NCBI RefSeq assembly: GCF_024498955.1
Contig: NZ_CP093311.1
Span: 2,542,001-2,606,000 of the forward strand
Direction: 5' to 3'
Length of the DNA stretch: 64,000 nt
From: Thermomonas paludicola
GTDB taxonomy: Bacteria; Pseudomonadota; Gammaproteobacteria; Xanthomonadales; Xanthomonadaceae
This document shows, one piece after another, positions 16,903 to 33,886 of the stretch (positions are counted from its first letter, which is position 1; each line of letters starts with the position of its first letter). The notes under the pieces are model-generated. The model saw only the letters and a program-made list of their open reading frames with translations. It was not told the origin of the DNA and searched no databases. The position numbers and the translations under genes were made by a program.

Positions 16903-16937
16903 AAGGCTGGTCACGGCGTCATGCCGTGGCCAGCCTT
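16903..16937. terminator. Bidirectional hairpin between receptor and collagenase genes
   Basis: The stem AAGGCTGGTCACGGC / GCCGTGGCCAGCCTT has one wobble and a GTCAT loop. It is placed between two convergent genes and could end transcription from both sides. Confidence 0.7.
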
Positions 16938-17087
16938 CATGTATTGCAATCGATATTCTCTTCCGTGGTCGCGTGGCTCCACCGGCCACTTCGAACGCCA
17001 ACGGCCTGGCCCTGTTGCAGCCCTGACGCCATGGCTCCGGCCAACGAGCGCGCAGGGCCGTCAAGGCGACCCCGCGCACCCCACGCA

Positions 17088-32280: not shown

Positions 32281-32311
32281 AACCGGAATCCTGCGAGCAA
32301 TGGTGGGTGAT

Positions 32312-33886
32312 ATGGAACAGGTACTGATCGCCGGCGAATGGCGCGCGCCGATCGACGCGACGGGCAGCTTCCGCGCGCTGGACCCGGCCACCGGCGAGGC
32401 CATCGGCCCGGCGTTCCCGCGCTCCGGCGCGGACGACGTCGAACTGGCGGTGGTGTCGGCTGCGCAGGCCGCCGATGCGCTGGCGGCAACGGAGCCCGCG
32501 CACATCGCCGATTTCCTCGACGCCTATGCCGACGCCATCGACGCGACGAAAGACGAGCTTGTCGCCACCGCGCACGCGGAGACCGGCTTGCCCATCTCGC
32601 CACGCCTGGCCGAGGTCGAACTGCCGCGCACCAGCGGCCAACTGCGGCAGGCCGCGCAGGCGGTGCGCGATTATGCGTGGACGCAGCCGGTCATCGACAC
32701 CAAGGCCGGCCTGCGCGCCCACTTCGCGCCGCTGCACAAGCCGGTGCTGGTGTTCGGCCCCAACAACTTCCCGTTCGCGTTCAACGCGGTGGCCGGCAGT
32801 GATTTCGCTTCCGCCATCGCCGCGCGCAACCCGGTCATCGCCAAGGCGCACCCCTCGCACCCTGCCACCAGCAGACTGCTGGCGGCGCTGGCGCACGATG
32901 CTGCGGTGGCCTGCGGGCTGCCGGCAGCCAGCGTGCAACTGCTGTACGACATCGAGCCCGCGCTGGGCCTGCGCCTCGCCGGTGATCGCCGGTTCGGCGC
33001 GATCGGGTTTACCGGCAGCCGTACTGCCGGGCTTGCATTGAAAGCGGCAGCCGATGCCGCAGGCATCCCGATCTTTGCCGAGATGTCCAGCGTGAATCCG
33101 GTGTTCCTGCTGCCGGGCGCGCTGCGTGAACGCGGCGCGACGCTGGCGCAGGAGTTTTTCGCCTCCTGCACGATGGGCAGCGGCCAGTTCTGCACCAATC
33201 CGGGCATCGTGCTGGTGCCGGCCGGCGCGGATGGCGATGCGTTCGTCGCGTGCGCGGCAGAAAAGTTCGAGGCCGCCGCACCGATGGTGCTGTTCTCGCA
33301 GGGCGTGCAGCGGCACCTGGCCGATGCCGTGCAGGCGCTGCGCGCCGCCGGCGCACGGGTGGAGGCGGGCAAGGCGCAGGCCGGGGGCCCCGGCTTCCGC
33401 TACGCACCCACGCTGCTGGCAGCGGATGGCGCCGCCTTCCTCGCCAACGCGCAGGCGTTGCAGCGGGAAGCGTTCGGCCCGGTCTCGCTGCTGCTGCGCT
33501 ACCGCGACGAGAACGAAGCGGTGGCGCTCGCCCACGCCTTCGACGGCAACCTCACCGGCTCGCTGTTCGCTGCCAGCGACGGCAGCGACGATGTCGCCTG
33601 GCGCCGCATCGCCGCCGCCCTGCGCCCGCGCGTGGGCCGGCTGATCGACGGCAAATGGCCCACCGGCGTCGCGGTCAGCCCGGCCATGCAGCACGGCGGG
33701 CCGTATCCCAGCACCAGCCACGCCGGCTTCACCTCGGTGGGCATGCCGGGCGCGATTCATCGCTTCGCGCAGTGGCAGAGCTTCGACAACGTGCGCGATG
33801 ACCGCCTGCCCCCCGACCTGCGCGATGCCAATCCGTTTGGCATGCAGCGGCGGGTGGACGGCGTGTGGAGCGACCACACGCCCTGA
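32312..33886 (+). CDS. 2-oxoglutarate-semialdehyde dehydrogenase (NADP-type aldehyde dehydrogenase)
   Basis: The product has 524 residues, the length of the KGSADH class-III subgroup. It has the cofactor-binding GPNNFPFAFN, FTGSRTAG and the general base Glu257 in IPIFAEMSSVNPVFLLPGAL. The catalytic Cys294 is in MGSGQFCTNPGIV. It oxidises 2-oxoglutarate semialdehyde to 2-oxoglutarate, the last step of trans-4-hydroxyproline breakdown, feeding the TCA cycle. The gene follows the DHDPS-type deaminase by 67 bases that include REP copy D. The start at ATG 32312 fits the family, and an ATG four codons earlier is also in frame. It might also accept the 2-aminoadipate semialdehyde formed by the hydroxylysine branch (inference). 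Confidence 0.9.
   Translation: MEQVLIAGEWRAPIDATGSFRALDPATGEAIGPAFPRSGADDVELAVVSAAQAADALAATEPAHIADFLDAYADAIDATKDELVATAHAETGLPISPRLAEVELPRTSGQLRQAAQAVRDYAWTQPVIDTKAGLRAHFAPLHKPVLVFGPNNFPFAFNAVAGSDFASAIAARNPVIAKAHPSHPATSRLLAALAHDAAVACGLPAASVQLLYDIEPALGLRLAGDRRFGAIGFTGSRTAGLALKAAADAAGIPIFAEMSSVNPVFLLPGALRERGATLAQEFFASCTMGSGQFCTNPGIVLVPAGADGDAFVACAAEKFEAAAPMVLFSQGVQRHLADAVQALRAAGARVEAGKAQAGGPGFRYAPTLLAADGAAFLANAQALQREAFGPVSLLLRYRDENEAVALAHAFDGNLTGSLFAASDGSDDVAWRRIAAALRPRVGRLIDGKWPTGVAVSPAMQHGGPYPSTSHAGFTSVGMPGAIHRFAQWQSFDNVRDDRLPPDLRDANPFGMQRRVDGVWSDHTP

What the first reader, a model, noticed from the sequence alone, without database searches (positions are those of the whole stretch)
16926..33886. 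A compact collagen-utilisation locus: collagenase to TCA-cycle intermediates
In 17 kb the sequence shows a secreted M9 collagenase (HEYIH, two PKD, PPC), a DPP-IV-like S9 peptidase, an M24 prolidase-type peptidase and a D-amino-acid dehydrogenase. It also has a full hydroxyproline route: epimerase with Cys88/Cys238, DHDPS-type deaminase and 2-oxoglutarate-semialdehyde dehydrogenase. A hydroxylysine-kinase-like and phospho-lyase pair completes it. Hydroxyproline and hydroxylysine are hallmark collagen residues, so having catabolic genes for both next to a collagenase suggests a single dedicated programme. Each gene family is known, but I am not aware of this combination being described as one locus.
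Basis: partly seen in the sequence, partly recalled or inferred. Interest (0 to 1): 0.9.

Follow-up and report, generated by a model that had tools for sequence, protein, structure and literature searches.

The report
Collagen-eating locus with hydroxylysine branch
A bacterium carries, side by side, an enzyme that cuts collagen and genes that look able to burn collagen's two special amino acids; the hydroxyproline part is a known kind of cluster, while the hydroxylysine part looks like a bacterial pathway for which I found no published description.

Summary
In a Thermomonas-genus genome, 17.1-33.9 kb encodes a secreted M9 collagenase, S9 and M24 peptidases, a D-amino-acid dehydrogenase-like protein, a hydroxyproline epimerase/deaminase/semialdehyde-dehydrogenase set, and an APH-type kinase with a class-III PLP lyase. 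Collagenase plus hydroxyproline genes is a known kind of cluster (Colwellia, PMC7883544; Streptomyces HypR regulon, PMC6608401), and a congener (G016) has it without the kinase-lyase block. The new part is the pair. In 80 loci from other genomes a kinase precedes the lyase on the same strand in 80, and 41 of 80 have within 10 kb a gene fitting collagen hydroxylysine: beta-galactosidase (32), YgjK-like alpha-glucosidase (22), aminoadipate-semialdehyde genes (15), M9 (2) or a proline-racemase-family gene (2). Collagen hydroxylysine carries Glc-alpha1,2-Gal. A distant locus (L091) again joins the pair to a hydroxyproline set. Best reading: a bacterial hydroxylysine kinase / phospho-lyase route inside a hydroxyproline operon beside a collagenase. 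Substrate is inferred; ethanolamine is the main rival, and sugar genes near the pair in Dyella are a caution. GH42 and YgjK-like relatives were not found in this genome. New variant of a known kind.

The parts
17088..20027 (-). secreted M9 collagenase, M9_N + M9 + 2 PKD + PPC
   Evidence: 74% identical orthologue at the same place in G016
20247..20266 (.). tandem/palindromic TATACGG-type site between the divergent collagenase and GntR genes; candidate operator
   Evidence: four overlapping matches, all at this one place in the window; 0 of 100 shuffles had four; function inferred
20318..21004 (+). GntR/FCD regulator; 35% identical to a GntR beside the hydroxyproline set of G037
21226..22104 (-). 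TauE/SafE-family permease; role unexplained, no relative in the 80 other loci at E 1e-10
22151..23503 (-). class-III PLP phospho-lyase; likely start ATG 23449; proposed 5-phosphohydroxylysine phospho-lyase
23488..24465 (-). APH-fold kinase, proposed hydroxylysine kinase
24449..26815 (-). S9 peptidase, DPP-IV N-domain + catalytic domain
   Evidence: 86% in G016
26867..28168 (-). M24 Xaa-Pro type peptidase; likely start ATG 28075
28174..29445 (-). FAD D-amino-acid dehydrogenase-like, proposed D-hydroxyproline dehydrogenase
29511..30452 (-). PAS + AraC-type regulator; likely start ATG 30284
30329..31285 (+). 4-hydroxyproline 2-epimerase (proline racemase family), start Met5 likely
31336..32244 (+). 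[quoted passage not shown]
32300..33886 (+). ALDH family, proposed 2-oxoglutarate-semialdehyde dehydrogenase
13936..16809 (+). TonB-dependent receptor beside the collagenase; possible importer of collagen peptides
   Evidence: link inferred from position only

Best explanation
The locus is a collagen-utilisation island with two amino-acid branches. The exported M9 collagenase cuts collagen; the S9 and M24 peptidases finish proline-rich peptides. Hydroxyproline goes L-Hyp, D-Hyp (epimerase), pyrroline-4-hydroxy-2-carboxylate (FAD dehydrogenase), 2-oxoglutarate semialdehyde (deaminase), 2-oxoglutarate (dehydrogenase). Hydroxylysine is phosphorylated by the APH-type kinase to 5-phosphohydroxylysine and split by the PLP lyase to ammonia, phosphate and 2-aminoadipate 6-semialdehyde (in balance with piperideine-6-carboxylate), which the genome's unlinked L-piperidine-6-carboxylate dehydrogenase oxidises to 2-aminoadipate. 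Kinase and lyase are packed inside the minus-strand run that holds D-Hyp dehydrogenase, M24 and S9. In related bacteria the same pair comes with alpha-glucosidase and beta-galactosidase, enzymes able in principle to strip Glc-alpha1,2-Gal from collagen hydroxylysine. Shown: genes, motifs, packing, recurrent linkage. Inferred: every substrate, co-transcription and the direction of flow.
For: Families and motifs. Packing DAO-M24-S9-kinase-lyase-TauE: gap 5 (98 with the ATG start), gap 51, overlap 17, overlap 16 (gap 38 with the ATG start), gap 46 bases (coordinates, starts). Lyase: best solved relative is human ethanolamine-phosphate phospho-lyase 6TOR, 504 bits, then the Arthrobacter phospholyase 5G4I, 351; the next class-III enzyme has 212, so it is of phospho-lyase type. 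In 80 of 80 genome-contig loci a kinase relative precedes the lyase on the same strand, ending within 100 bases in 64 and 702-768 bases before it in 16; fused frames in 37. Within 10 kb: GH42 or GH2 beta-galactosidase 32 of 80, YgjK/GH63-like 22, P6C dehydrogenase 7, saccharopine dehydrogenase plus a lysine-ketoglutarate-reductase-like protein 8, M9 2, proline-racemase family 2. L101 and L104: GH2, fused kinase-lyase, P6C dehydrogenase on one strand with gaps of 44-87 bases; P6C dehydrogenase 824 and 812 bits over the cut-off 730. L102, L107, L114: the GH2 frame overlaps the kinase-lyase frame by 1-4 bases. Undibacterium loci (L042, L043, L047, L049, L053) also share an S9-family peptidase frame near the lyase. 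L091: kinase, lyase, two M24, DAO, DapA, proline-racemase family, KGSADH, GntR. L107, L114: M9 catalytic domain about 4 kb from the pair. Family-matched sample of 196 genomes: M9 in 22 of 28 with the kinase, 35 of 168 without, Fisher p 5e-9. Own genome: P6C dehydrogenase 757.6 over 730.
Against: No assay. The closest characterised lyase is an ethanolamine-phosphate enzyme, and no phosphohydroxylysine enzyme was among the 60 solved relatives shown, so sequence alone does not choose. 39 of 80 loci show none of the tested neighbours; nine Kiloniella neighbours named were uninformative. In Dyella/Rhodanobacter other recurrent neighbours are a mandelate-racemase-type dehydratase, an SMP-30-type lactonase and a sugar transporter: they fit use of the freed galactose but equally a plain sugar locus. 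YgjK-like and GH42 relatives were not found in the window genome; the YgjK-like gene is present in G016, which lacks the kinase. P6C dehydrogenase is over the cut-off in 7 of 7 genomes tested, with or without the kinase. In the class-wide sample kinase and M9 overlap only in the window genome: 1 of 8 against 2 of 362 (p 0.06), 0 of 7 without it. In congener G014 the pair is not with hydroxyproline genes; congener G016 keeps the collagen-hydroxyproline locus without the pair. Related genomes share ancestry, so the p value overstates independence, and the neighbour counts reflect far fewer events than loci. TauE/SafE is unexplained.
Confidence: 0.76

Rival explanations
1. The pair degrades ethanolamine: ethanolamine kinase plus ethanolamine-phosphate phospho-lyase giving acetaldehyde. 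Its place in the collagen locus is chance or serves phospholipid from the same animal tissue.
For: Best solved relative of the lyase is human ethanolamine-phosphate phospho-lyase. The block is absent from G016's otherwise equal locus, so it could be an unrelated insertion.
Against: Neighbours in other lineages fit aminoadipate semialdehyde and galactosyl-hydroxylysine rather than acetaldehyde; I ran no dedicated search for ethanolamine genes. The window lyase shares stretches with the animal enzyme (SPYKF, ES..CGGQ) that the Arthrobacter enzyme lacks in the printed alignments. The permease beside GH42 in L048 is closest to GadC-type amino-acid antiporters (199.7 bits, cut-off 650), and no ethanolamine permease is among its 10 listed families.
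Confidence: 0.12
2. Broad-specificity pair that takes several amino alcohols, with hydroxylysine only one of them, or a family with several specificities.
For: 39 of 80 loci have none of the tested neighbours, and fused forms with an M23 domain occur in Kiloniella and, by length, in other phyla.
Against: Links to collagen- or aminoadipate-related genes in several different arrangements.
Confidence: 0.08
3. The beta-galactosidase and glucosidase neighbours mark plain sugar loci and the pair is a bystander there, so they say nothing about its substrate.
For: GalK and GalT relatives in 2 of 80 loci (L101, L113), a sodium:solute symporter in L101; dehydratase, lactonase and sugar transporter families near the pair in Dyella/Rhodanobacter.
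Against: GH2 and kinase-lyase frames overlap in L102, L107, L114, where no GalK/GalT relative was found within the locus. Two different beta-galactosidase families are linked in two lineages, with YgjK-like genes in both. Freed galactose needs such sugar genes, so they fit the main reading too. The saccharopine and P6C links do not depend on the glycosidases.
Confidence: 0.12

Closest known systems
Collagen utilisation cluster of Colwellia MAG BB5, C. piezophila and C. psychrerythraea GAB14E (PMC7883544; passages seen)
   Same: M9 collagenase, hydroxyproline epimerase, D-Hyp dehydrogenase, deaminase (BB5), ketoglutaric-type dehydrogenase, Xaa-Pro peptidases, TonB receptor (BB5) in about 21 kb
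   Different: No word beginning with hydroxylysine or lysine in its main text. GAB14E does hold a fused kinase-lyase with GH2 and the saccharopine pair, on another contig (L102). The PPIases and PutR of BB5 were not among the window families I scanned; the window has S9, GntR and the kinase-lyase pair.
Streptomyces coelicolor HypR regulon (PMC6608401; passages seen)
   Same: GntR regulator, hydroxyproline genes and an M9/PKD/PPC collagenase under common control
   Different: The collagenase gene (SCO5912) is far in number from the hydroxyproline genes (SCO6289-93); hydroxylysine has 0 occurrences in the main text
Animal hydroxylysine kinase and 5-phosphohydroxy-L-lysine ammoniophospholyase, Veiga-da-Cunha 2012 (reference title seen; paper not held)
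   Same: A kinase plus a class-III PLP ammoniophospholyase acting on the phosphorylated amine
   Different: Bacterial, adjacent or fused genes; specificity not tested. The gene symbols HYKK/AGPHD1 and PHYKPL/AGXT2L2 are recalled.
PRK06148 / PRK06149 fused kinase-(M23)-lyase proteins
   Same: Lyase and kinase of the window are each best matched by one end of PRK06148 (704.6 and 233.8 bits)
   Different: Not fused in the window, no M23 part, each below the model's cut-off of 1128
GH65 PGGHG, the animal glucosidase acting on Glc-alpha1,2-Gal-Hyl (PMC8626586; passages seen)
   Same: The activity I expect of the YgjK-like neighbour in related loci
   Different: Another glycosidase family (best solved relative E. 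coli YgjK, 287 bits); no relative found in the window genome

Membership tests
M9 collagenase | M9_N and M9 domains with HEXXH and downstream glutamate | tested here: met
   217.7 and 391.6 bits; HEYIH 557, EGFAE 586
M9 collagenase | cuts native triple-helical collagen | not testable with these tools
   needs assay
4-hydroxyproline 2-epimerase | two catalytic cysteines | tested here: met
   Cys92 and Cys242 of the frame, Cys88/Cys238 from Met5
4-hydroxyproline 2-epimerase | NCBIfam equivalog cut-off | tested here: not met
   429.5 of 442 (PRK13970) and 390.2 of 450; these two are the best of six models; named by operon as well, so 'proposed'
Bacterial hydroxyproline operon | epimerase, D-Hyp dehydrogenase, deaminase and KGSA dehydrogenase together | tested here: met
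   relatives of all four together in G016 and G037, of three in G030, G025, G032, G046
Collagen utilisation cluster (Colwellia type) | M9 beside hydroxyproline genes, recurring in relatives | tested here: met
   (G016, G046); M9 within 5 kb of a PF05544 gene in 7 of the 21 M9-bearing genomes among 49 (G427, G432, G438, G442, G458, G459, G465; read by eye from the two lists)
Hydroxylysine kinase | APH family with HxDxxxxN and DFG-type motif | tested here: met
   confident model (pLDDT 90.8), but the fold search did not run
Hydroxylysine kinase | phosphorylates 5-hydroxylysine | not testable with these tools
   needs assay
5-phosphohydroxylysine phospho-lyase | class-III PLP enzyme of phospho-lyase type | tested here: met
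   the two best matches are phospho-lyases, 504 and 351 bits, next best 212
5-phosphohydroxylysine phospho-lyase | specific for phosphohydroxylysine over phosphoethanolamine | not testable with these tools
   no reference sequence of that animal enzyme came up; context only
PRK06148 subfamily | fused full-length match over 1128 bits | tested here: not met
   the fused L101 protein has 1013 of 1128

The most novel reading that the evidence does not exclude
Gammaproteobacteria, and perhaps other phyla, have a dedicated and undescribed pathway for glycosylated hydroxylysine of collagen: exported YgjK-like alpha-glucosidase and GH42 or GH2 beta-galactosidase take off Glc and Gal, then a hydroxylysine kinase, a phosphohydroxylysine phospho-lyase and piperideine-6-carboxylate dehydrogenase feed lysine catabolism. 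In this Thermomonas the core pair has been built into the hydroxyproline operon beside a collagenase, giving one locus for both collagen-specific amino acids.
Probability: 0.64. Interest if true: 0.84.

Novelty: new variant of a known kind. Interest (0 to 1): 0.73.

Why it matters
Hydroxylysine and its galactosyl and glucosylgalactosyl forms are hallmarks of animal collagen, and I found no paper on a kinase/phospho-lyase route for it in bacteria. The lyase relatives that bear a public name are filed as '4-aminobutyrate aminotransferase-like' or 'aminotransferase class III-fold' among the best 120 hits, so many genes may be misnamed. If right, it gives a testable bacterial pathway, a genomic marker for collagen-feeding microbes, and enzymes for collagen waste and for assaying hydroxylysine glycosides.

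Tried and rejected
Recent transfer of the block: GntR-TauE-lyase-kinase have GC 0.62-0.67 and GC3 0.67-0.83 against 0.68-0.72 and 0.83-0.89 for the hydroxyproline enzymes and M24; lower, but the collagenase is lower still (0.61), so no firm conclusion; gain here and loss in G016 are not told apart. Promoter scan: 1 sigma-70-like site against 1.4 expected, no use. A shared operator for collagenase and the hydroxyproline genes: the TATACGG tandem is at 20247-20266 only, so no regulon evidence. Class-wide co-occurrence of kinase and M9: too few. L098's racemase-family gene: 27% identity only, may be another enzyme; counted but not leaned on. Kiloniella loci: neighbours uninformative. Pseudoalteromonas tunicata paper with 'hydroxylysine': it is N6-hydroxylysine of a siderophore. 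Kinase fold search and lyase model: machine busy each time, so not done.

Dropped or partial: tallies 7 of 60 relatives, but only G000, G014 and G037 were treated as having the kinase; G023, G049 (E above 1e-5) and G038, G059 (about 1e-25) were not. The class-wide M9 count (3 of 370) includes a short fragment in G089. Naming the nine added the sugar-gene caution; I lowered the main reading from 0.78 to 0.76 and raised the bystander rival from 0.10 to 0.12 for that.
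Full report
What is there. The window is bases 2,542,001-2,606,000 of a 2.7-Mb single-contig genome. Congener G014 has a contig of 113,161 bases, the length of the Thermomonas sp. DF_7_1.31 contig of L046, which carries the same pair, so the genus is taken to be Thermomonas (inference). The collagenase (17088-20027, -) points away from a GntR/FCD regulator (20318-21004, +). 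Then follow, all on the minus strand and transcribed from right to left, DAO, M24, S9, kinase, lyase and TauE/SafE with gaps or overlaps of under 100 bases. A PAS-AraC regulator lies between this run and the plus-strand run epimerase, deaminase, semialdehyde dehydrogenase. The epimerase falls just under the curated cut-offs and the other hydroxyproline enzymes further under, so their names rest on family and order.

The locus in relatives. In 60 relatives at E 1e-30, homologues of the epimerase are in 12 and of the 979-aa collagenase query in 9, of which only G000, G016 and G046 cover the M9 part; the others match its C-terminal PKD/PPC part. Within the genus, epimerase and M9 are each in 2 of 25 (G000, G016) and strong kinase hits in 2 of 25 (G000, G014). 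G016 has M9, S9, M24, DAO, AraC, HypE, DapA, KGSADH in the same order at 74-94% identity, and 200 bases between M9 and S9 where the window has GntR, TauE, lyase and kinase. So the kinase-lyase block is a variable part of a steadier collagen-hydroxyproline locus. In G046, of another family, an M9 gene again lies beside HypE.

What the pair is. The lyase matches human ethanolamine-phosphate phospho-lyase at 504 bits and the Arthrobacter phospholyase at 351; the next class-III enzymes are at 212 and below. The kinase is of the APH family with HNDANDYN and DFGD; its model has mean pLDDT 90.8, but the fold search never ran. Kinase plus ammoniophospholyase is the animal way to degrade 5-hydroxylysine, and the second enzyme type also acts on phosphoethanolamine (reference title seen; the paper is not held).

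What it acts on. One scan of a collection of 84,980 species genomes with the alignment of two lyases gave 324 relatives, of which the best 80 were kept. In 80 of 80 a kinase relative precedes the lyase on the same strand. I clustered the neighbours without regard to function and named 19 of the 20 clusters, other than the pair, that occur in six or more loci (one of these had no family). They include GntR-FCD, TonB receptor, GH42 and GH2 beta-galactosidase, YgjK-like alpha-glucosidase, L-piperidine-6-carboxylate dehydrogenase, saccharopine dehydrogenase with an AlaDh/PNT-N protein, and NhaC-type antiporter, but also 5'-nucleotidase, NnrS, class-V aminotransferase, diacylglycerol kinase, AsnC regulator, and, in Dyella/Rhodanobacter, amino-acid permease, sugar transporter, mandelate-racemase-type dehydratase and SMP-30 lactonase. 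By tblastn within the fetched loci: beta-galactosidase 32, YgjK-like 22 (all 22 also with a beta-galactosidase), P6C dehydrogenase 7 (at 50% identity or more), saccharopine pair 8, GadC-like permease 17, NhaC 6, M9 2, proline-racemase family 2; 41 of 80 have a beta-galactosidase, YgjK-like, P6C dehydrogenase, saccharopine pair, M9 or racemase-family gene, 34 of 59 among loci over 18 kb. Collagen hydroxylysine carries Glc-alpha1,2-Gal (PMC8626586, passages). The product expected from phosphohydroxylysine is the substrate of P6C dehydrogenase and an intermediate of the saccharopine route (established biochemistry, recalled). Acetaldehyde from ethanolamine would explain neither.

Arrangements differ by lineage, which argues for function beyond shared descent: Dyella/Rhodanobacter have permease, GH42, kinase, lyase, GntR, TonB receptor, YgjK-like; four Undibacterium loci, and a fifth, have P6C dehydrogenase with kinase and lyase, and five loci of that group share an S9-family peptidase frame; Colwellia-like bacteria have GntR, GH2, fused kinase-lyase, then P6C dehydrogenase or the saccharopine pair; L107 and L114 add an M9 protein with a lipobox-like start about 4 kb away; L091, a gammaproteobacterial MAG, has the pair with a hydroxyproline set, though no M9 was found in that genome (G450). 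The GH2 and GH42 proteins listed, and several YgjK-like ones, begin with signal-peptide-like stretches (by eye), so deglycosylation would be outside the cytoplasm.

Co-occurrence. M9 was found in 21 of 49 genomes with the pair and in 3 of 370 of a class-wide sample. A fairer test is within one family: of 196 genomes, 28 have the kinase, 57 have M9, 22 both; Fisher p 5e-9. M9 lies within 10 kb of the kinase in 3 of the 28 (G464, G470, G575; expected 0.32 under uniform placement, P 0.004); G464 and G470 are the genomes of L107 and L114. In the class-wide sample the overlap is the window genome alone, so there is no signal there. A proline-racemase-family gene was found in 36 of 49, without a matched background.

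The window strain. P6C dehydrogenase is in the genome, unlinked. YgjK-like and GH42 relatives were not found in it; the YgjK-like gene is in G014, which has the pair, and in G016, which has not. GH2 and other beta-galactosidase families were not searched in it. So this strain may use free hydroxylysine, or other glycosidases. TauE/SafE has no counterpart in the 80 loci; it may be the transporter or unrelated.

Known or new. M9 with hydroxyproline genes is in print as a collagen utilisation cluster in Colwellia (PMC7883544, passages) and as a regulon in Streptomyces (PMC6608401, passages). Neither main text has the word hydroxylysine, yet C. psychrerythraea GAB14E of the first paper holds the fused kinase-lyase beside GH2 and the saccharopine pair (L102). 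For a bacterial hydroxylysine kinase/phospho-lyase pathway I found no paper in ten full-text searches of the open library, judged from listings. Of 33 papers with 'hydroxylysine kinase', 20 were listed; the one bacterial paper I saw among them uses it as a gene annotation in Herbaspirillum, beside a '4-aminobutyrate aminotransferase' (PMC13275390, passage). Subscription journals are not covered. An older oxidative route for hydroxylysine in Pseudomonas is recalled, not checked.

Verdict.

Noticed in passing
33929-36380: NtrB/NtrC nitrogen regulators: the NtrB frame starts 42 bases after the semialdehyde dehydrogenase, same strand (NtrC 675 bits over cut-off 558.6; NtrB 205.9 under 240). Possible nitrogen control of the locus.
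   Followed up: no
20247-20266: Tandem TATACGG palindrome between the divergent collagenase and GntR genes, the only place in the window.
   Followed up: partly
40984-43317: A second S9 prolyl-oligopeptidase-family gene, 24% identical over about half its length to the S9 gene of G016.
   Followed up: no
43726-47070: 1114-aa ankyrin-repeat protein.
   Followed up: no
50317-56339: Glutamate synthase-type small and large subunits; glutamine synthetase at 8690-10246.
   Followed up: no
L101:726-4541: Galactokinase, galactose-1-phosphate uridylyltransferase and a sodium:solute symporter near GH2 and the kinase-lyase gene; GalK/GalT relatives in 2 of 80 loci.
   Followed up: partly
G464:C3:103353-106958, G470:C70:114983-118606, G575:C1:4201146-4204805: Open frames of about 2090 aa with two M9 matches each, i.e. 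double collagenases.
   Followed up: no
L083:8234-11317: Fused APH - M23 - class-III protein; why an M23 peptidase domain sits between kinase and lyase is unexplained.
   Followed up: no
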